Shown here piece after piece: positions 5,091 through 10,923 of a stretch of DNA of 10,923 nucleotides. The notes below the pieces were generated by a model. That model saw only the letters and a list, made by a program, of their open reading frames with translations, ran no database searches and had not been told where the DNA came from. The stretch's first letter is position 1, and each line of letters opens with the position of its first letter. The stretch is from Candidatus Paceibacter sp. (GTDB lineage: Bacteria > Patescibacteriota > Minisyncoccia > Phycocordibacterales > JABAAK01): positions 1 to 10,923 of the forward strand of contig JABAAK010000078.1 of the NCBI GenBank assembly GCA_014238775.1. Direction: 5' to 3'. The position numbers were made by a program, and so were the translations under genes.

Positions 5091-5221
5091 TAACCAAACC
5101 CTCTAGTTACAATAGCATCGCCGAATCCTTGTATTGGTAAATTGTCTTGCACTTTACCAGACGGCGGAGTTGGTATAACCGTGCCAAGTATCGGCAACGT
5201 CACGCGTGCGCCGTTAGACAT
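5090..5221 (-). CDS. 43-residue microprotein between portal and fibre
   Basis: A short open frame encodes 43 residues beginning MSNGARVTLPILGTVIPTPP and ending VTRGFG. Its ATG lies inside the last codons of the portal gene (8-base overlap), and its stop overlaps the fibre ATG by one base (TAATG). It therefore bridges the two genes exactly, and this is the main evidence that it is real. The sequence is glycine- and proline-rich, with no cysteine, no membrane segment and no obvious helix. It could be an extended peptide that decorates or staples virion parts, or a leader peptide that couples fibre translation to portal translation. The only candidate ribosome site is a weak TAGG about 10 bases upstream. 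I do not recognise the family. Confidence 0.6.
   Translation of the reverse strand: MSNGARVTLPILGTVIPTPPSGKVQDNLPIQGFGDAIVTRGFG
5099..5103 (-). promoter_or_regulatory. Shine-Dalgarno of the fibre gene
   Basis: GAGGG on the minus strand lies 8 bases before the ATG at 5090. It supports that start and shows that this internal, overlapping gene is translated from a leadered, polycistronic message. Confidence 0.5.
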
Positions 5222-7322
5222 GAGGTACCAGCCTACAGCGACAGCGTGGATGTCTTGGCGGTGGCTTGTCTCCGAGATCCTCGTTTATCTCCGAGCCCTC
5301 AAGCGGTCGACATAGAGGACACACTTTGTCATCTTTCCAGGTCGTCCATATCTCTCGTACCTCTTGCTTGGCGTCTGGCGTTCCCGTTATCTGATTCGAG
5401 GCACTTATCGTACCAAGATTAACAGCAGTAGTACCGATCATGGTCTGTAATCCGTATGCGTAATTGTTTGCCAGTTGGAACGCAAACACTTGATCCCATC
5501 CAAATGCTCCGATGAGTTTCTTGCTGTCTTTACCAGCTCGCGTGTCCATTTCCTTTTTTACGCCGTCTCGGAGTTTTGTTACGCCAGACCAAAACGCCTC
5601 CTCTGTTTGTCTTGCTGTATCTTGTATCTTGTTAATGTCCGTGTTTGTAAGTATCGGCGGTAGTTTTGTCTTGAGCTGCTCTTGCGCATATTGCTGACCC
5701 TCCATGTATGCGGCTTGCGCTCCTTGTACGAGTTTGTTGTATATGAGAGGACCATTACGGTCTCGGAGATCGTCTATTGTCGCTGTACTCTTTGCATACT
5801 TTACCAAGAGCGGTTTTAATTCACTGCCAATCATAGACTCTAGTTTTTGCATATTCTGATCAGATAACGTTAGTGCACGGCCTGCAGCTCCAAACATGGT
5901 ACTCTGTGTCTGCTCGACATGTTGCGAGGTAATCTCATCGCTTTTCTCCTCGATTAACGGATCCGTTGGTATCGCTGTCTTTGTGTGAATCTCAAGTCTC
6001 ATAGAGAGCTCGTTCACACTCTTACCTTTTAGATGTGCTAACAAAGGCGTCAAGAGCTGCTCGCTAAAGTCTGTACAGATGGCAACCTCTGCAGGCTTGC
6101 GTATCAGTTTGAGGTACTGGATTATTTGCACAGTAGCAATGTCACGATTCAGCGTATGCTCTCTGTTTAGCATGGATTTAGGCACGCCAACAATTGAGAG
6201 CATCGCATCCGCAAGTTTACGCTCTATTATGTCGATCATGGCAGAGTCTGTCTTGACGCCGACACTCTTTACATCTCGGAGCTCCTCGCCAGTAGCAATT
6301 GCCGTATTACCTCGTGTCGCTACTTGCTGTACGACCTTTGTCATGTGCTCCTCCTCGTTTGCGATGTTAGACTCTTTAAAGTCAAACATGAGTAACGCTC
6401 TGTCAATGTATGCGGCAACGACTGCCTCTGGCATGTTGTAATTGTACAGTCGCTTTATCGTCTGCGATATTACGAGCATCGGCTCAAAGGATGACGTGCC
6501 GTAATAATCGTCAGTAGGCCGCAAGCCGAGGTCTCCTTTGAGTATGTATACGACCTCATCCATACGTGCGTGCGTCTTTTCTAATCGCTGCAGCGTAAGT
6601 CCTTGCATCTTGTAAGTACGGCCAACGTCAATTATTACCTCGCGTATTGTATCATACGTCAGCAGTTTAATGCTCTCTGGTAACATGCCCGTTGCCAAGT
6701 CTTGTACACCTGGCGTTATCAAAGCGGCGGTACGTCCTTGCGTAAATGCCGAGCTGTCACATTGTCGCATTATCTTTACGATGTTAATCTTTTTGGCCCA
6801 GTCCTCTATTTGCGCCAAGTACATGCCGTACTCTGCACTCTCTGCTGTAACGAGTGCGGTAATCTCACTCTCTGTCAAACGACTACCAGTTTGCGGATTA
6901 ACGGTACTCTTTGGTACGAGTTTGAGCTCGATGCCATCCTCAAAGAGAGAGTTATGGCGTACCTTTAGCGCAGGCGCTGCAATAGGATCAGTAGTCGCAC
7001 ACTTGGCAAACGCTTTACGAGTCTCGTTTACGTAAATGTCGTTTAACTGGCGTAACTGTATGTCTGGCTGTTTGTAACCATTATCGCCAGCAGCTCCGAT
7101 GAGTACCGTGTGTTTGTCTATGATTTTAAGCGAGTGCTCGTACTCTTGCTTCTCGCCCGTCTTGCTTGTGGTCGGCGGCCATGCTTTGGTCTCGGCCTCG
7201 TCATTTGTAACCACGCCAGTTTTATCGGCAGTATCCATATTTTTCAGCCAAGAGAGTGCGCCCTTGAGTTTATCGGAGCGCTCCTCGTCAAGTGCGTCTA
7301 GTTTGTCCGCGATAATACCCAT
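5214..7322 (-). CDS. Portal protein fused to a C-terminal MuF-like domain
   Basis: This 702-residue protein combines two virion parts. Residues of about 60-480 match the SPP1/HK97-like portal pattern. There is a YYGTSSFEP motif (273-281) followed by a long helix. Then comes VGVPKSMLN (378-386) followed by a helical stretch with NRDIATVQ, as in portals where a 'giP..ll' motif precedes the stem helix. The C-terminal part (about 500-702) is helical and ends in the cysteine/histidine signature of MuF proteins: DDKVCPLC (664-671), then PPPRHPRCRC (687-696). Portal proteins form the dodecameric DNA gate at one capsid vertex. MuF domains are minor head proteins bound near the portal. Fusion of the two is known in some phages. 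The gene follows the terminase nuclease gene after a 34-base gap that carries a TATA-like box at -28. The ATG has no Shine-Dalgarno. It overlaps the downstream microprotein by 8 bases. Confidence 0.85.
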   Translation of the reverse strand: MGIIADKLDALDEERSDKLKGALSWLKNMDTADKTGVVTNDEAETKAWPPTTSKTGEKQEYEHSLKIIDKHTVLIGAAGDNGYKQPDIQLRQLNDIYVNETRKAFAKCATTDPIAAPALKVRHNSLFEDGIELKLVPKSTVNPQTGSRLTESEITALVTAESAEYGMYLAQIEDWAKKINIVKIMRQCDSSAFTQGRTAALITPGVQDLATGMLPESIKLLTYDTIREVIIDVGRTYKMQGLTLQRLEKTHARMDEVVYILKGDLGLRPTDDYYGTSSFEPMLVISQTIKRLYNYNMPEAVVAAYIDRALLMFDFKESNIANEEEHMTKVVQQVATRGNTAIATGEELRDVKSVGVKTDSAMIDIIERKLADAMLSIVGVPKSMLNREHTLNRDIATVQIIQYLKLIRKPAEVAICTDFSEQLLTPLLAHLKGKSVNELSMRLEIHTKTAIPTDPLIEEKSDEITSQHVEQTQSTMFGAAGRALTLSDQNMQKLESMIGSELKPLLVKYAKSTATIDDLRDRNGPLIYNKLVQGAQAAYMEGQQYAQEQLKTKLPPILTNTDINKIQDTARQTEEAFWSGVTKLRDGVKKEMDTRAGKDSKKLIGAFGWDQVFAFQLANNYAYGLQTMIGTTAVNLGTISASNQITGTPDAKQEVREIWTTWKDDKVCPLCRPLEGSEINEDLGDKPPPRHPRCRCRLVPHV

Positions 7323-7344
7323 ACAGTATTACAGTATCGCTGTC

Positions 7345-7350
7345 TTTTAT
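7345..7350 (-). promoter_or_regulatory. TATA-like box for the portal gene
   Basis: ATAAAA on the minus strand lies 28 to 23 bases before the portal ATG at 7322, in the only gap between the terminase nuclease and portal genes. The ATG lacks a Shine-Dalgarno, so a leaderless portal transcript is plausible. Confidence 0.4.
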
Positions 7351-7356
7351 GCTTGT

Positions 7357-8091
7357 CTAGTCTACTTGGAGACTGTCATATCGTACGCCTCGCCGTGCAA
7401 GCGCCGCCTTTATCTCTTGCATTTTGCGCTCTCCAGCATCATGGCTTGGTCCGTCTAGAGACTTTGAGGCTATGACGTTAGTACGGCGTCTCTTGTACGC
7501 TCCAAGTAGATGGCGCTTGAGATCGTGTACCCAGATGATCAGACACGAGACGAGGTCATCATGTATACGCCTGCCGCTTGCGTCTGTACCAAGCCCCTCC
7601 CATTTACCAGCTCTGTTACGGCCGTATGCTGGGAGTTGCGCGTTTAACTGCCGTAAGCCCTCCGTGCCAGTTGATATCTCCAACTGTCCGCTTTGCTGAA
7701 ATCGGCGTACCCATTCTACGGTGGTATCCTTGTCGAGCGTGGTGCTTTTTGCAGTAGAGCGTCTGCCAAAACGTATCGCGCTCTCACGCTCTGTCGTACC
7801 AGTTACAATTGGTATTACGCGGAGACCTCTGTCTCGCAAGTTAGAGATGGTAACCACACCGAGTGCGTTCTTTTCACAGAGTATCCTATCGACATTCTGC
7901 TCATAGTTTATCTTGTAAATCTCCTTTTCAATGTTTGAAAAGCGACCGCCCATGTCAGCGAGTCTAAACTCACGAGCGCCAACTACTCTACCAAACGTTG
8001 GATATCTGTCTCCGATAAGACAGCCAAACGCATCGCCGCCATCGCCTGCTGGATCTAGTATCATGTCACGCGAGAGTCTACCGCTTGCCAT
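7357..8091 (-). CDS. Terminase large subunit, RNase H-like nuclease domain (separate gene)
   Basis: This 244-residue protein, starting MASGRLSRD, contains the C-terminal nuclease half of a phage terminase and no ATPase. The expected RNase H-fold acidic residues are all present: ILDPAGDGGDAF with D13 and D20, ILCEKN with E73, and IHDDL with D178 and D179, followed by D190. Between them lies the usual terminase segment with a conserved lysine (LDKDTTVEWVRRFQ, 119-132), followed by L-x2-Q-L. The C-terminus (from about 195) is basic. The domain cuts concatemeric DNA at the end of packaging and would have to dock on the ATPase encoded at 9360-10391. I chose the ATG at 8091 because it overlaps the stop of the preceding gene (TAATG) and has GAGG 8 bases upstream. 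An ATG-less extension to 8193 would only overlap that gene. The domain call is firm. Encoding it as a separate gene is the unusual part. Confidence 0.87.
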   Translation of the reverse strand: MASGRLSRDMILDPAGDGGDAFGCLIGDRYPTFGRVVGAREFRLADMGGRFSNIEKEIYKINYEQNVDRILCEKNALGVVTISNLRDRGLRVIPIVTGTTERESAIRFGRRSTAKSTTLDKDTTVEWVRRFQQSGQLEISTGTEGLRQLNAQLPAYGRNRAGKWEGLGTDASGRRIHDDLVSCLIIWVHDLKRHLLGAYKRRRTNVIASKSLDGPSHDAGERKMQEIKAALARRGVRYDSLQVD

Positions 8092-8282
8092 TACTGCCGC
8101 CTCTTTTTGCGTACTTGTCCTCGGCAACATCGACATACTTTGCTGCCGTTCTTGTCGATAACAGTACCGCTGGCCTTGAGTACAATGTCGCATCTTGTAC
8201 AGCGTACTTTGTCATGGTAAACACCAGTGCCAACAACTAGCGAGGCTTTATGTCTGACACAAGTGCCTTTGCACTCTAGCAT
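8091..8282 (-). CDS. Small zinc-binding protein, ECKGTC type
   Basis: This 63-residue basic protein has three cysteine clusters: C4-x3-C8 in MLECKGTCVRHKA, C28-x2-C31 in VRCTRC, and C50-x-C52-C53 in VCRCC. It ends in a strongly basic tail (RGQVRKKRRQ). The pattern closely resembles short proteins that I associate with thaumarchaeal genomes, beginning ECKGTC-x-R-x-K-A and carrying a C-terminal C-x2-C zinc ribbon. Their function is not known to me. The basic tail suggests binding of DNA, RNA or an acidic partner. The ATG overlaps the stop of the previous gene (TAATG) and has GAGGT 7 bases upstream. Its own stop overlaps the terminase nuclease ATG (TAATG), so nuclease translation may depend on this gene. 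Confidence 0.8.
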   Translation of the reverse strand: MLECKGTCVRHKASLVVGTGVYHDKVRCTRCDIVLKASGTVIDKNGSKVCRCCRGQVRKKRRQ

Positions 8283-8428
8283 TATCGTAACCTCTCATTC
8301 ATTGCGCCGCCGATGTTAGCGCCGCATATACAGCCGTATGTACTGCACTCTTTGCCTTTGTGTCCAGGACATCCGCAAACTCTGCAAGAGTCGTTACGTA
8401 CTCGCTCCCAGTTATTAGCAGAGCTCAC
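8282..8428 (-). CDS. Small CCHC zinc-knuckle protein
   Basis: With the GTG at 8428 the product is 48 residues. It holds a perfect CCHC zinc knuckle, C15-x2-C18-x4-H23-x4-C28 (CRVCGCPGHKGKEC), followed by C33-x-C35. Zinc knuckles of this spacing usually bind single-stranded nucleic acid. I preferred GTG 8428 because it overlaps the stop of the preceding gene as GTGA, like the neighbours. An ATG at 8479 in the same frame would add 17 residues and overlap the preceding gene by 55 bases. Neither start has a good Shine-Dalgarno, so the start is uncertain while the frame is not. The stop overlaps the next ATG (TAATG). The gene belongs to the zinc-protein cluster lying between the two terminase domains. 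Confidence 0.68.
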   Translation of the reverse strand: MSSANNWERVRNDSCRVCGCPGHKGKECSTYGCICGANIGGAMNERLR

Positions 8429-8640
8429 GGTACCACGCCGCGTATTGTATACTGTGTGCACGGACAGCCTGGCACACATGCACCTTTGCCGCCGACATGG
8501 CTTGCCTTTTCATGCTGGCAATCGCATGCAGTATCAGTACCTCTTGGTATAGCGCGTGCGTTTTCACAGTAACTACATTTGGTACCCATGTTACGGCCGC
8601 ACTTGCGACACTTGCGTCCGGTGCGCCGCTGTCCAATCAT
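8425..8640 (-). CDS. Small protein with two zinc-binding modules
   Basis: This 71-residue protein, starting MIGQRRTGRKC, has an N-terminal four-cysteine zinc ribbon (C11-x2-C14, C22-x2-C25). The second module is C39-x-C41-x-H43-x4-H48-x6-C55-x3-C59-x-C61, followed by T-Q-Y. The second module has the same layout as the one in the gene at 8882-9112, which suggests duplication within the cluster. I chose the ATG at 8640, which overlaps the previous stop as ATGA. The longer frame to 8685 would begin with GTG and overlap the upstream gene by 49 bases. A GGAG lies 12 bases upstream, a rather long spacing. The function is unknown. Nucleic-acid or protein binding through zinc is the only supportable role. 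Confidence 0.75.
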   Translation of the reverse strand: MIGQRRTGRKCRKCGRNMGTKCSYCENARAIPRGTDTACDCQHEKASHVGGKGACVPGCPCTQYTIRGVVP

Positions 8641-8882
8641 CTCGCACACTCTCTCCAATTCTTGATACTCATGTGAGGTCCACACTCACACTTGCCGTTA
8701 TCTGCAGTACATCGTAAGTTTGGCTGACATACGAGTATTGTACCAAAGGCGTCACGCTTTACTACCTTGTGATCAATGACGTCAGAATAATGCAAAGCGA
8801 CTTGGTGACCGCACTTTGGACACATCTGGTCTATGCCAGTACCAGGTTTAAACTCGGAGCCGCTTGGTAGTATTATCGGCAT
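8637..8882 (-). CDS. Small zinc-ribbon protein
   Basis: This 81-residue protein starts MPIILPSGSEF. It has a zinc-ribbon half-site C21-x2-C24 that continues as G-H26-x4-H31, and further cysteines at C52, C58, C65 and C67 (the last two in C-x-C). The CGH-x4-H element also occurs in the neighbour at 8882-9112, although here the first pair is C-x2-C rather than C-x-C. I chose the ATG at 8882 because it overlaps the previous stop as TGATG and has GAGGT 9 bases upstream; a GTG immediately before it is less likely. It sits in the cluster of overlapping small genes between the terminase ATPase and nuclease. I do not recognise a named family. Confidence 0.75.
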   Translation of the reverse strand: MPIILPSGSEFKPGTGIDQMCPKCGHQVALHYSDVIDHKVVKRDAFGTILVCQPNLRCTADNGKCECGPHMSIKNWRECAR

Positions 8883-9112
8883 CACTCGTCTACCTCTGGC
8901 CTATGTGACCAATCAGCAAAGTATGGCGTGCCTTGTCTGAATTGAGTACACTGGCACAAAGCGTAAGCGCATATGGTAGGTCCCTCTCCTCTGTTATGCG
9001 AGTCCTCGCTATGTCCGCAAGTGCAATATCCAGCGTACGGATCCTTTGCGGCTCTGCGATATTTCAGCGCGCATTTTATCCGTGTTAATATCAATTGCAG
9101 TACGCGTCTCAT
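8882..9112 (-). CDS. Small zinc protein with C-x-C-G-H-x4-H module
   Basis: This 76-residue protein has a basic, partly hydrophobic N-terminal helix (about residues 2-22). A compact module follows: C30-x-C32-G-H34-x4-H39-x8-C48-x4-C53-x-C55, then T-Q-F. Modules of this type are, to my knowledge, frequent in small proteins of Nitrososphaerota, where their function is unclear, and this is one reason for the host call. There is a 47-base gap to the previous gene. The ATG has no Shine-Dalgarno but has a TATA-like ATAAAT at -29 to -24, so a leaderless transcript may start here and cover the rest of the zinc cluster and the terminase nuclease. The stop overlaps the next ATG (TGATG). Confidence 0.78.
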   Translation of the reverse strand: MRRVLQLILTRIKCALKYRRAAKDPYAGYCTCGHSEDSHNRGEGPTICAYALCQCTQFRQGTPYFADWSHRPEVDE

Positions 9113-9135
9113 ACTTACGCATACTCGGCTAGTGA

Positions 9136-9141
9136 ATTTAT
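9136..9141 (-). promoter_or_regulatory. TATA-like box inside the zinc-protein cluster
   Basis: ATAAAT on the minus strand lies 29 to 24 bases before the ATG at 9112, in a 47-base gap between two small genes. The run upstream of it (CTAAAACC) is A-rich, as archaeal BRE sites often are. The downstream ATG lacks a Shine-Dalgarno. It could drive the other five zinc genes and the terminase nuclease. Confidence 0.4.
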
Positions 9142-9159
9142 GGTTTTAGCATAGGCGGC

Positions 9160-9363
9160 TCATGTTGGCGGATCGTCCAGTATTGCTTGGAGGTTTGCCG
9201 AGTTATTGAGGCGATGGCGTTCTTTGGCGCTCCCAGACGAGCGCCGATCCGACCCATTATCAACAAAGCATTGGTACGTACAATACTTGCGTCTGTCATG
9301 TTCAGCCTCAAAGGCAACACCGCATCCATTACAGATCATCCAAATAAACGGCATGCCGCTCAT
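9160..9363 (-). CDS. Small zinc-finger protein next to the terminase ATPase
   Basis: This 67-residue protein has one short zinc finger, C11-x2-C14-x13-C28-x3-C32 (ICNGCGVAF, then RRKYCTYQC). This resembles the 'C-x2-C-G-x2-F...R-x-K-Y-C-S-x2-C' fingers common in small phage proteins, sometimes in front of HNH nuclease domains. The rest is short and polar (ending ILDDPPT), with no HNH residues that I can identify. The ATG overlaps the terminase ATPase stop as ATGA and has GAGGT 9 bases upstream, which strongly supports the start. A competing frame at 9138-9329 has no such start signals. As the first gene after the ATPase half, it could be an accessory of the packaging motor or the remnant of an inserted element; the sequence does not decide. 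Confidence 0.75.
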   Translation of the reverse strand: MSGMPFIWMICNGCGVAFEAEHDRRKYCTYQCFVDNGSDRRSSGSAKERHRLNNSANLQAILDDPPT

Positions 9364-10391
9364 ATATCCAGTACCTCTGTATCTGGCGGCGGACGTGCAA
9401 ACTCTCCAAAGGCTTTACCGCCGTACTGTGGCCACTTGCACTTGAATAGGCGCTCGTACTCATCTGTCGGCATGCCGCTCTCAAACGAGGCACGCATCTC
9501 TTTGGTTATGAGCCCGTACTTTACGTAATCGTCAATGTCGTATTGGTGGCAAGACCACGCCATAATTTTCTCGCTCTCCTTTTCTATTCCCTGCTCCAAG
9601 TCTATGATGTCGGCCTCTTGCTGGTCGGGGTTTATTCCCTCTAGGTTAAACTTGGTCTTGGCGATGTCCCAAAAGTGTCCGTAACGTCTGTGTCCAGGTA
9701 CTCCCTCCATGAGTATGCGCCCTTGCGAGTTGGCAATACGTCCGTATAGCGCGTTGAAAAATGACGTTTGGTCCACAGCCTTGACCTCTGCTGGATCTGT
9801 AATGTGTACACGTACAACGTCTGGCCAAGAGTATGCAAGACTCTCGCTGAATCCAATACCTGTAATCTTGCTAGGCAGTAACGGGTTATACGGATTTACA
9901 ATAACGGCTGTCGCCATGTTACTTTTCTCCTCTTTAAACAAGAACTTCTCCGGCTGTTTAATTAGATACTTGCGGTAGTTTGACGTGATGAGTAAACGCT
10001 TGAGCTCTAACACTAGCGCGTTAGCGAGCCGTTGAGTTGGCGCCATGAGCAGACATCTACCAGAGGCCCAGCGTGGCTGCAGTAACTCTGTCGTATCGAG
10101 GAGCATCCCACACATAGATACGCCGCCTCTGTTAGACTTGTGCACGAGTACGCATTGTGCTGGATCATTCCATATAGCAACTTGGTGCGGAGCCCAGACT
10201 GTAACCTGTGCTTTGTGCTTGCCAGTCTTGTCCATGTTACGAGGATGCGCAAAGCCGCCAATTGCTTTTAGAGCAGCATTTGCCTCTGTTGGAATCTTGA
10301 CACTCTGCTTTGCTTGAGCGGTGGCTATGTAGTTTATGGCCGCAGCCTCAAGGCTCGAGTGTTGGCTTTGCATCGCCTTGCTTAACGTCAT
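9360..10391 (-). CDS. Terminase large subunit, ATPase domain (separate gene)
   Basis: This 343-residue protein holds only the N-terminal motor half of a phage terminase. A Q-motif-like APHQVAIW spans 67-74. A deviant Walker A lies at about 84-93 (HKSNRGGVSM), without the classical GxxGxGKT. A Walker B-like strand, VVRVHITDPAEV (192-203), places D199 and E202 around a proline. A motif III-like segment (GRILMEGVPG, 224-233) follows. The end (DEYERLFKCKWPQYGG, 310-325) is the usual linker before the nuclease domain, but here the protein stops. ATP hydrolysis by this domain drives DNA into the procapsid through the portal. The nuclease half is encoded at 7357-8091. The ATG overlaps the terminase small-subunit gene by 44 bases. 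A TATA box at -29 with no Shine-Dalgarno supports this start, although an ATG at 10373 is possible. Confidence 0.83.
   Translation of the reverse strand: MTLSKAMQSQHSSLEAAAINYIATAQAKQSVKIPTEANAALKAIGGFAHPRNMDKTGKHKAQVTVWAPHQVAIWNDPAQCVLVHKSNRGGVSMCGMLLDTTELLQPRWASGRCLLMAPTQRLANALVLELKRLLITSNYRKYLIKQPEKFLFKEEKSNMATAVIVNPYNPLLPSKITGIGFSESLAYSWPDVVRVHITDPAEVKAVDQTSFFNALYGRIANSQGRILMEGVPGHRRYGHFWDIAKTKFNLEGINPDQQEADIIDLEQGIEKESEKIMAWSCHQYDIDDYVKYGLITKEMRASFESGMPTDEYERLFKCKWPQYGGKAFGEFARPPPDTEVLDI
9373..9377 (-). promoter_or_regulatory. Shine-Dalgarno of the first zinc gene
   Basis: GAGGT on the minus strand lies 9 bases before the ATG at 9363, inside the end of the terminase ATPase gene. The same motif and spacing occur before the ATG at 8882 (GAGGT at 8892-8896). 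Similar sites precede 8282 (GAGGT at 8290-8294, 7 bases) and 8091 (GAGG at 8100-8103, 8 bases). These sites fix the starts of the coupled genes. Confidence 0.5.
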
Positions 10392-10827
10392 GCAGATACT
10401 TACTCACGGCGGCATTTATAACCTCTTTTGGCGTCTTGGATATGGTCGCATCCAGTAACATCTCTTGCACTTTGGCCTTTGCAGTTATCGCTGATATCAG
10501 CGTTTTAGGATCGGCGTCTTTGTCTTTGGCGTTCTCACGCTGTAATACTTTGTCGAGCTCTCCCATGCAGTCGGCATACGTGTACTGTGCCATGTAGATG
10601 GCCATGCTTGCACGAGGCAAGTACCCAGGATCGTTTGTGATCCATCTGCCGCGTATTGCCACCATGTCTGCATTAATAGTTTTGACAGCTCCGAGACGGC
10701 GGCCGTCATCGTAAAAGGGATGTGGCGTTGCGGCGATTTGTGTTACCGTGAGTCCTCGTGTCATTAACAGCTCTACTTTACGTTGGCGTGCGGCCGTTGC
10801 CATTTGTGTCTTAACCGTCTTTGCCAT
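10348..10827 (-). CDS. Terminase small subunit-like DNA-binding protein
   Basis: Started at the ATG at 10827, this 159-residue protein begins MAKTVKTQMATAARQRKVEL. It contains a helix-turn-helix-like region at about residues 10-57 (RQRKVELLMTRGLTVTQIA, then a variable turn, then TINADMVAI). The remainder (about 70-155) is largely helical and charged, as in terminase small subunits, where it forms the oligomer. Such proteins recognise the packaging site and load the large subunit. The identification rests on this architecture and on lying directly before the terminase ATPase with a 44-base overlap; the sequence itself is too diverged for certainty. The frame could be extended to a TTG at 10839, but a strong TATA box 25 bases before the ATG and the absence of a Shine-Dalgarno favour a leaderless start at 10827. 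A general HTH regulator is the alternative. Confidence 0.62.
   Translation of the reverse strand: MAKTVKTQMATAARQRKVELLMTRGLTVTQIAATPHPFYDDGRRLGAVKTINADMVAIRGRWITNDPGYLPRASMAIYMAQYTYADCMGELDKVLQRENAKDKDADPKTLISAITAKAKVQEMLLDATISKTPKEVINAAVSKYLHDVKQGDAKPTLEP
10414..10421 (-). promoter_or_regulatory. TATA box for the terminase ATPase gene
   Basis: TTATAAAT on the minus strand lies 30 to 23 bases before the ATG at 10391, preceded by a purine-rich run (AAAAGAGG) that could serve as a BRE. It is inside the end of the terminase small-subunit gene. Its distance from the ATG matches the other four TATA-like boxes of the window. Confidence 0.45.
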
Positions 10828-10923
10828 GAATAGAGACAACGGCGCCTATATATAAAAACAATACACTATACGCCTAGCCCTCCAGTACCGCCGATATCGT
10901 CACTCAAAATCGGTAAAAATTCA
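10828..10923. other. Intergenic region upstream of the packaging genes
   Basis: These 96 bases hold no open frame I can support. They contain the TATA box described above, an 8-base palindrome CGATATCG (10892-10899), and an imperfect inverted repeat around the TATA box: GGCG-cc-TATA at 10841-10850 against TATACGCC at 10867-10874. The latter could be an operator, but the arms are short. The region continues beyond the right edge. Confidence 0.4.
10847..10858 (-). promoter_or_regulatory. Strong TATA box at the head of the gene block
   Basis: On the minus strand the 12-base run TTTTTATATATA lies 31 to 20 bases before the ATG at 10827. It contains the archaeal consensus TTTATATA and is the best promoter of the window. 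It fits a leaderless transcript that begins at or near the ATG and could run through the packaging genes. The same A/T tract could also act on the plus strand, but no plus-strand gene starts inside the window. Confidence 0.6.

What the first reader, a model, noticed from the sequence alone, without database searches (positions are those of the whole stretch)
7357..10391. Terminase large subunit split into two genes 1.27 kb apart
The gene at 9360-10391 has the terminase ATPase motifs and stops exactly where the nuclease domain should begin. The gene at 7357-8091 has the complete acidic set of the RNase H-like nuclease (D13, E73, D178/D179, D190) and begins exactly at that domain. In the usual arrangement, one polypeptide carries both. 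Inteins and introns in terminase genes are known, but here each half has its own start signal and the gap is filled with six overlapping genes, so this looks like a stable two-protein motor. The halves must then dock in trans, perhaps through the small proteins encoded between them.
Basis: partly seen in the sequence, partly recalled or inferred. Interest (0 to 1): 0.75.

Follow-up and report, generated by a model that had tools for sequence, protein, structure and literature searches.

The report
Virus packaging motor in two genes
A virus, probably one of ammonia-oxidising archaea, seems to encode the engine and the DNA cutter of its genome-packaging motor as two separate proteins instead of one, and relatives suggest that this arrangement is old and arose more than once.

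Summary
The 343-aa gene (9360-10391) is a terminase (TerL) ATPase half; the 244-aa gene (7357-8091) is an RNase H-like nuclease half. The evidence comes from relatives; the window's own halves miss Pfam's cut-offs.

The split is not peculiar to this contig. Of 25 database relatives of the ATPase, 21 are 322-367 aa long and end at about the same point; 4 are truncated. In the window, a Nitrosopumilus MAG (L026) and an integrated provirus of the same family (L037) the order is ATPase, nuclease, portal. The insert differs: six small Cys-rich ORFs, two genes, or none. The L037 nuclease starts 9 bases after the ATPase stop and passes Pfam's Terminase_6C cut-off.

More distant proviruses are split too; others are intact. 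Split versus intact needs three changes on an ATPase tree. Breaks lie in the interdomain linker (30-45 residues summed; intact 34-39). Rfam finds no intron.

Best reading: a two-gene terminase in tailed viruses of Nitrososphaeria, ATPase and nuclease acting in trans (inferred). Whether it arose by fission or by nuclease replacement is open: the free nucleases do not match the C-terminal parts of the intact TerLs with the closest ATPases. Docking through the small proteins is not supported as a general device.

The parts
10348..10839 (-). 163-aa ORF (TTG start) upstream of the ATPase, in the position of the small terminase subunit
   Evidence: Position and a helix-turn-helix-like look only; no family match
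9360..10391 (-). TerL ATPase half, 343 aa
   Evidence: 21 near full-length relatives aligned; profile match to TerLs of Nitrososphaeria, prob 98.0, portal control 0.1; AlphaFold model pLDDT 74.7, pTM 0.73
10116..10139 (-). Walker A-like stretch K85-S92 (KSNRGGVS); motif name recalled
   Evidence: K85, N87 and G90 invariant in 22 of 22 rows
9792..9797 (-). D199-P200, Walker B-like position (HITDP); motif name recalled
   Evidence: Invariant in 22 of 22 rows
9696..9707 (-). E229-G-V-P232, at the place of the ATPase coupling motif; motif name recalled
   Evidence: E229, G230 and P232 invariant in 22 of 22 rows
9160..9363 (-). small Cys-rich ORF 1, 67 aa, ATGA overlap with the ATPase stop
   Evidence: weak PHROG matches of unknown function, best E 3e-4
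8882..9112 (-). small Cys-rich ORF 2, 76 aa
8637..8885 (-). small Cys-rich ORF 3, 82 aa (GTG start)
8425..8640 (-). small Cys-rich ORF 4, 71 aa (ATG chosen here; one search lists a longer GTG form to 8685)
8282..8428 (-). small Cys-rich ORF 5, 48 aa (GTG chosen here; one search lists a longer ATG form to 8479)
   Evidence: phrog_1311 E 0.0072
8091..8282 (-). small Cys-rich ORF 6, 63 aa, TAATG overlaps on both sides
7357..8091 (-). TerL nuclease half, 244 aa (RNase H-like, Terminase_6C type)
   Evidence: Aligned with L026 and L037 nucleases; L037 over the Pfam cut-off; profile match to C-terminal part of an intact-TerL set, prob 96.5, portal control 0.3. Structure model unusable
8053..8055 (-). 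D13 of the nuclease, first acidic residue
   Evidence: invariant in 3 of 3
7873..7875 (-). E73 of the nuclease
   Evidence: invariant in 3 of 3
7555..7563 (-). H177-D178-D179 of the nuclease
   Evidence: invariant in 3 of 3
5214..7322 (-). portal fused to a Mu F-like domain, 702 aa; marks the packaging block
   Evidence: PF04233 E 8e-5, 23.8 bits, below its cut-off of 29.6; portal part 36-38% identical to L026 and L037 portals

Best explanation
This is a tailed virus, most likely of Nitrososphaeria, whose large terminase is encoded by two genes, an ATPase and a nuclease, translated separately from one operon. The ATPase presumably docks on the portal and pumps DNA; the nuclease presumably joins it, the small subunit or the portal to cut at the start and end of packaging. 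In this clade the two genes probably first lay side by side, as in L037, and small genes later entered the gap (six in the window, two in L026). Shown: separate ORFs, conserved residues, conserved order with the portal, a break in the interdomain linker, recurrence in other loci. Inferred: that both proteins are made and act in trans, what docks them, the order of split and insertion, and the host. Open: whether the split arose by fission of one gene or by loss of the old nuclease domain and recruitment of another.
For: 25 relatives of the ATPase, 21 of them 322-367 aa with a common end. L037 and L026 have a separate nuclease before the portal; the L037 nuclease passes Pfam's Terminase_6C cut-off and is the only Terminase_6C match in its genome. 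ATPase and nuclease profiles match the N- and C-terminal parts of TerL sets, 98.0 and 96.5, portal controls 0.1 and 0.3. Other splits: L077 with both halves over Pfam's cut-offs, and L122 and L123, whose nucleases match the TerL set at 96.9, portal control 0.3. Residues between the ATPase core and the first nuclease Asp sum to 30-45 in six splits and are 34-39 in four intact TerLs. No Rfam match in window, L037, L026, L122 and L123.
Against: No RNA or protein data. The window's halves miss Pfam's cut-offs. The L026 ATPase has an in-frame TGA, the L098 ATPase is in pieces and L124 is frameshifted, so some loci are decaying. The free nucleases of the window group and of L122/L123 do not match the C-terminal parts of intact L120/L121, which carry the closest intact ATPases (0.4 and 0.5; two-row profile): plain fission of that very protein is not shown. 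Halves of L122, L123 and intact L120 have no Pfam match. For P0005-P0026 the neighbouring genes were not seen, apart from P0022, which is the L026 fragment.
Confidence: 0.8

Rival explanations
1. The gap is an intron or intein and the halves are joined after transcription or translation, as in phages whose terL is cut by group I introns.
For: Such cases are known: terL in 2-3 pieces through group I introns, with splicing shown by RNA reads (PMC12363816, passages); terL with inteins (PMC7156551, passages).
Against: No Rfam family in window, L037, L026, L122 and L123 at gathering threshold, nor at E up to 1 in window 7300-10450. The two genes touch or overlap in L037, L077, L122 and L123. The window's insert is tiled by overlapping ORFs.
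Confidence: 0.04
2. The halves are remnants of a decayed or misassembled terL and neither works.
For: Single contig without reads; L026 has an in-frame TGA, L098 and L124 are broken.
Against: Both ORFs are open with conserved residues; relatives in separate assemblies break at about the same place; L037 keeps an integrase, tape-measure and neck match.
Confidence: 0.08
3. The second gene is a different nuclease that was recruited: an ancestor lost its own C-terminal domain and a stand-alone Terminase_6C-like nuclease took over. It is still a two-protein motor, but not by fission.
For: Free nucleases of the window group and of L122/L123 match the L104-type TerL set (96.5, 96.9) but not the C-terminal parts of intact L120/L121 (0.4, 0.5), although the ATPases are related.
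Against: L120/L121 form a two-row profile, so a miss means little; L121 has a weak Terminase_6C match of its own (E 0.015); summed linker lengths equal those of intact TerLs.
Confidence: 0.3
4. A fused protein is made by stop readthrough or frameshifting where the genes adjoin.
For: In L037 the two ORFs are in the same frame with one TAG and 9 bases between; L077 has an ATGA overlap.
Against: Impossible for the window: 15-22 stops per frame in the insert. L037 has a GGAG before the nuclease start.
Confidence: 0.04
5. The second gene is a nuclease unrelated to packaging that happens to lie there.
For: The window's nuclease misses Pfam's cut-off.
Against: The L037 homologue passes the Terminase_6C cut-off and matches the C-terminal part of phrog_38 terminase; it sits before the portal in 3 of 3 loci.
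Confidence: 0.03

Closest known systems
Canonical single-polypeptide TerL (Terminase_6N + Terminase_6C), e.g. intact L104/L106 in Nitrososphaeria; Thermus phages P23-45 and P74-26 match the L077 nuclease
   Same: ATPase and RNase H-like nuclease profiles, gene order before the portal
   Different: Two ORFs instead of one; in the window 1.27 kb apart
terL cut by group I introns in Jug phages (PMC12363816, passages) or by an intron and intein in a Campylobacter phage (PMC3322345, passages)
   Same: terL in pieces
   Different: There the pieces are rejoined; here no intron was found and the break lies between the domains
NitKor-E1 element with TerS and TerL only (PMC6563490, passages)
   Same: Thaumarchaeal TerS-TerL pair; L039-L041 look alike (not compared by sequence)
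   Different: No separate nuclease is described in the passages seen; window, L026 and L037 carry nuclease and portal
phi29-type ATPase-only packaging motor (recalled; PMC11476376 seen in search listings only)
   Same: ATPase without an attached nuclease
   Different: Here a nuclease gene follows, and the ATPase aligns with TerL
Short PHROG 'terminase large subunit' profiles phrog_5573 (250) and phrog_5909 (285)
   Same: Weak matches of the L037 and L026 nucleases (E 0.017 and 0.01); their length suggests free nuclease genes elsewhere
   Different: Members not examined

Membership tests
TerL ATPase domain | Profile homology to TerL ATPases | tested here: met
   prob 98.0 to a set of 5 single-ORF TerLs and 2 split ATPases; portal control 0.1. 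Direct Pfam match not met for the window; Terminase_6N matches 2 of 22 family members, best E 0.0022
TerL ATPase domain | Walker B Asp followed by Glu (recalled) | tested here: not met
   D199 is followed by Pro in 22 of 22 rows; invariant E229 lies elsewhere
TerL nuclease domain | Profile homology to Terminase_6C | tested here: met
   L037 homologue 26.3 against 22.6 bits; group profile 96.5 to the TerL set, control 0.3. Window alone 14.5 bits and L026 17.4 bits, below cut-off
TerL nuclease domain | Three or more conserved acidic residues | tested here: met
   D13, E73, D178, D179 in 3 of 3
Canonical TerL | Both domains in one polypeptide | tested here: not met
   two ORFs
Intron-split terL | Self-splicing intron between the pieces | tested here: not met
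   no Rfam match
Two-subunit terminase | Both proteins made, binding each other and packaging in trans | not testable with these tools
   needs expression, binding and packaging assays

The most novel reading that the evidence does not exclude
In tailed viruses of Nitrososphaeria the large terminase became two genes at least three times, giving a motor whose nuclease is a detachable and perhaps exchangeable subunit. In the window's clade the split is fixed, and the gap between the halves collects small genes that may regulate when the motor cuts.
Probability: 0.45. Interest if true: 0.75.

Novelty: new variant of a known kind. Interest (0 to 1): 0.62.

Why it matters
TerL is used as a near-universal single-gene marker of tailed viruses; one review calls the attached nuclease domain a universal feature across Caudovirales (PMC7824862, passages). 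A natural, repeated separation would show that pumping and cutting need no covalent link, makes their coordination testable with two proteins, and warns that TerL-based detection can miss these viruses: the window's ATPase found nothing in the phage records or in the viral contig scans made with it or its family.

Tried and rejected
Searches without a match: tblastn against 50,697 phage records with the window's ATPase, portal and nuclease, P0010 and the L037 nuclease; seven viral-contig scans; PDB sequences with the ATPase profile gave four weak hits to hydrolases (E 0.39-0.42), taken as chance. Terminase_6N and Terminase_6C in the window's own bin gave none, which says little because these models also miss the window's own halves.

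Rows dropped: of 20 places listed, 13 were set aside; 8 of these were read (L050, L051, L053, L055, L059, L062, L063, L064) and are proteins with a repeated WWADGSIDD-like stretch, 5 (L052, L054, L056, L060, L061) were not read. Of 6 short Terminase_6C frames, L081 reaches a contig end, L097 starts at a contig start and L092 lies 392 bases from one; these three were not counted as free-standing. L100 is a free nuclease over the cut-off with no ATPase recognised in the 4.5 kb upstream that I listed. L047/L065: nuclease near a contig end, no ATPase seen. L066 and L067 (splits) and L026 were left out of the tree.

Codon-bias test of the six ORFs inconclusive. Nuclease model unusable, pLDDT 33.7. 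The homing-element idea: only weak HNH-family PHROG matches to ORF 1 (E 0.019 and 0.2), no intron.

They supported L122/L123 as nucleases and showed that free nucleases do not match the C-terminal parts of L120/L121; I added the replacement rival and lowered the novel-case probability from 0.5 to 0.45 and the confidence to 0.8.
Full report
WHAT IS THERE. The main genes of the 10,923-base contig lie on the minus strand: a 163-aa ORF in the TerS position, the ATPase gene (9360-10391), six small ORFs, the nuclease gene (7357-8091), a 702-aa portal fused to a Mu F-like domain, a 1316-aa protein and two small ones. The contig is binned in a 478-kb assembly. From the proteins I read, the bin looks like a Patescibacterium (my judgement). 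Its readable contigs are mostly near GC 0.31; the window has GC 0.476 and tetranucleotide r = 0.02 with the sample (23 other contigs fetched, 12 without readable bases). I take the window as misbinned or foreign. Among fetched loci over 5 kb the closest composition is L066, a provirus locus from the order of the Nitrosopumilus genome (r = 0.58). The host is therefore inferred, not shown.

EACH HALF. Alone, the window's halves are weak. One search found two relatives of the ATPase besides itself and none of the nuclease. A profile search then gave 26 proteins at E up to 1 among 3178 candidates, the window's own included. Of the other 25, 21 are 322-367 aa and 4 are truncated: two end in what I recognise as adapter, P0022 stops at a TGA, P0027 comes from a 650-base contig. 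Candidates up to 600 aa were eligible, but the search reaches only relatives sharing short words. Twenty-two rows, the window included, align to a common end.

RELATIVES WITH DNA. One GTDB scan gave L026, in a Nitrosopumilus MAG. The ATPase profile matched 8 of 250 genomes of that family, among them L037. In L037 the order is TerS-like, ATPase (359 aa), nuclease (232 aa), portal, Mu F. The junction reads GGATAC TAG GAGAACCAA ATG. The L037 nuclease has 26.3 bits against a cut-off of 22.6 and is the only Terminase_6C match listed for its genome. Integrase, tape-measure and neck profiles match nearby genes; the 410-aa candidate capsid protein matches none. In L026 a HELLH-containing 122-aa gene and a 62-aa gene with CxxC lie between the halves; its ATPase carries an in-frame TGA. 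The three nucleases share D13-P, C72-E73-x-N75, D120 and H177-D-D. The L026 and L037 portals are 36 and 38% identical to the window's.

LINK TO TERMINASES. The ATPase family aligns to columns 40-285 of 473 of a seven-row set (five single-ORF TerLs, two split ATPases), prob 98.0. The three nucleases align to columns 248-409 of 448 of a second set (four single-ORF TerLs, three free nucleases), prob 96.5, the displayed row being the single-ORF L104 at residues 383-550. Against the portal set they score 0.1 and 0.3. In 400 genomes of the order, Terminase_6C gave 22 matches in 21 genomes: 16 in frames of 417 aa or more, 6 in frames of 247 aa or less, three of these six at or near contig ends. Ten ORFs of 426-579 aa were read out; one, L102, begins inside an intein-like stretch.

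RECURRENCE. The ATPase profile matched 14 of 400 genomes of the class and 9 of 398 of the phylum, largely the same ones. Two class genomes have single-ORF TerLs with this kind of ATPase: L120 (540 aa, E 9.1e-61) and L121 (503 aa, E 5.3e-40). Two have splits: L122 (324 + 228 aa) and L123 (341 + 244 aa); L124 is frameshifted. The L122/L123 nucleases have no Pfam match but match the TerL set at 96.9, portal control 0.3. L077 has both halves over Pfam's cut-offs and an ATGA overlap; L076 has only 142 aa of nuclease and L098 a broken ATPase. A tree of 38 ATPase domains joins window, L037 and 21 metagenome ATPases (support 100/99) and, apart from them, L120-L124, the remnant L038 and three ATPase-only loci (100/98); L076, L077 and four single-ORF TerLs were the outgroup. 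Split against single-ORF rows need three changes. This cannot tell split from fusion; I take three splits because one-gene TerL is the general state (recall; PMC7824862). The window and L037 sit on long branches.

AGAINST PLAIN FISSION. The free nucleases of the window group and of L122/L123 do not match the L120/L121 set (0.4 and 0.5). That set has two rows, so the miss is weak evidence, but it leaves open that the nuclease was replaced rather than cut off. For fission speaks the break point: residues from the ATPase core to the first nuclease Asp sum to 35 (window), 35 (L037), 30 (L026), 33 (L122), 42 (L123) and 45 (L077), against 38, 34, 39 and 39 in L120, L121, L104 and L106.

THE INSERT. 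The six ORFs hold 39 Cys in 407 residues and 7 CxxC; the other seven genes hold 25 Cys in 3019. Codon usage is inconclusive, 121 of 2000 shuffles reach 7 CxxC and one antisense frame has 31 Cys. Six of seven junctions overlap. They are likely, not proven, small zinc-binding proteins. Since four other splits have no insert and L026 has other genes, they are not the general docking device.

MECHANISM. Most likely two subunits made from one operon meet at the portal: the ATPase pumps, the nuclease is recruited to cut. The ATPase model is fair, pLDDT 74.7 and pTM 0.73; the nuclease model failed. Binding is untested.

PRINT. Ten searches of an open-licence PubMed Central library listed no paper whose title, abstract opening or opened passages describe free ATPase and nuclease terminase genes in archaeal viruses. 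Passages were seen of PMC11705971, PMC11849493, PMC6563490, PMC6210493, PMC7824862, PMC7156551, PMC3322345, PMC12363816, PMC8651126, PMC10848311 and PMC9855967. The nearest is terL cut by group I introns (PMC12363816). Subscription papers are not covered. I recall, from no call, that some phage annotation lists name TerL ATPase and nuclease domains separately, so annotators may know split TerLs.

Noticed in passing
window 9792-9797 and 9696-9707; alignment A3: The ATPase family has Asp-Pro where terminases usually have Asp-Glu (Walker B, recalled), and an invariant Glu (E229) at the coupling-motif position; L120-L122 show the same pattern by eye. The catalytic Glu may have moved.
   Followed up: partly
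L039:6356-8088, L040:8861-10250, L041:9501-10993: TerS-like and ATPase genes with no nuclease or portal recognised in the ORFs listed; they resemble the published NitKor-E1 element (not compared by sequence) and could be satellites that borrow a helper's capsid.
   Followed up: partly
window 5214-7322: Portal and Mu F-like protein are one 702-aa ORF here but two ORFs in L026 and L037: a fusion or split next to the terminase genes.
   Followed up: partly
L067:8972-9634 and 9627-10340: Two adjacent ORFs both match the nuclease profile (E 4e-12 and 1e-6).
   Followed up: no
L102:6344-8083: Single-ORF TerL that begins inside an intein-like stretch (by eye).
   Followed up: no
P0002, P0003: Both database proteins end in the same foreign 21-residue tail, which looks like sequencing-adapter readthrough (recognised from memory).
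   Followed up: yes
L009 (G000:C7): Contig of the same bin with GC 0.384 and tetranucleotide r 0.36 to both window and bin sample; a giant secreted-looking protein; perhaps another foreign contig.
   Followed up: no
L026:11017-11385 and L112:17466-17843: Small HELLH/HELIH metalloprotease-like genes, one of them between the terminase halves of L026.
   Followed up: no
L124:8436-10021: TerL in two overlapping frames that break just after the first nuclease Asp: decay or programmed frameshifting.
   Followed up: no
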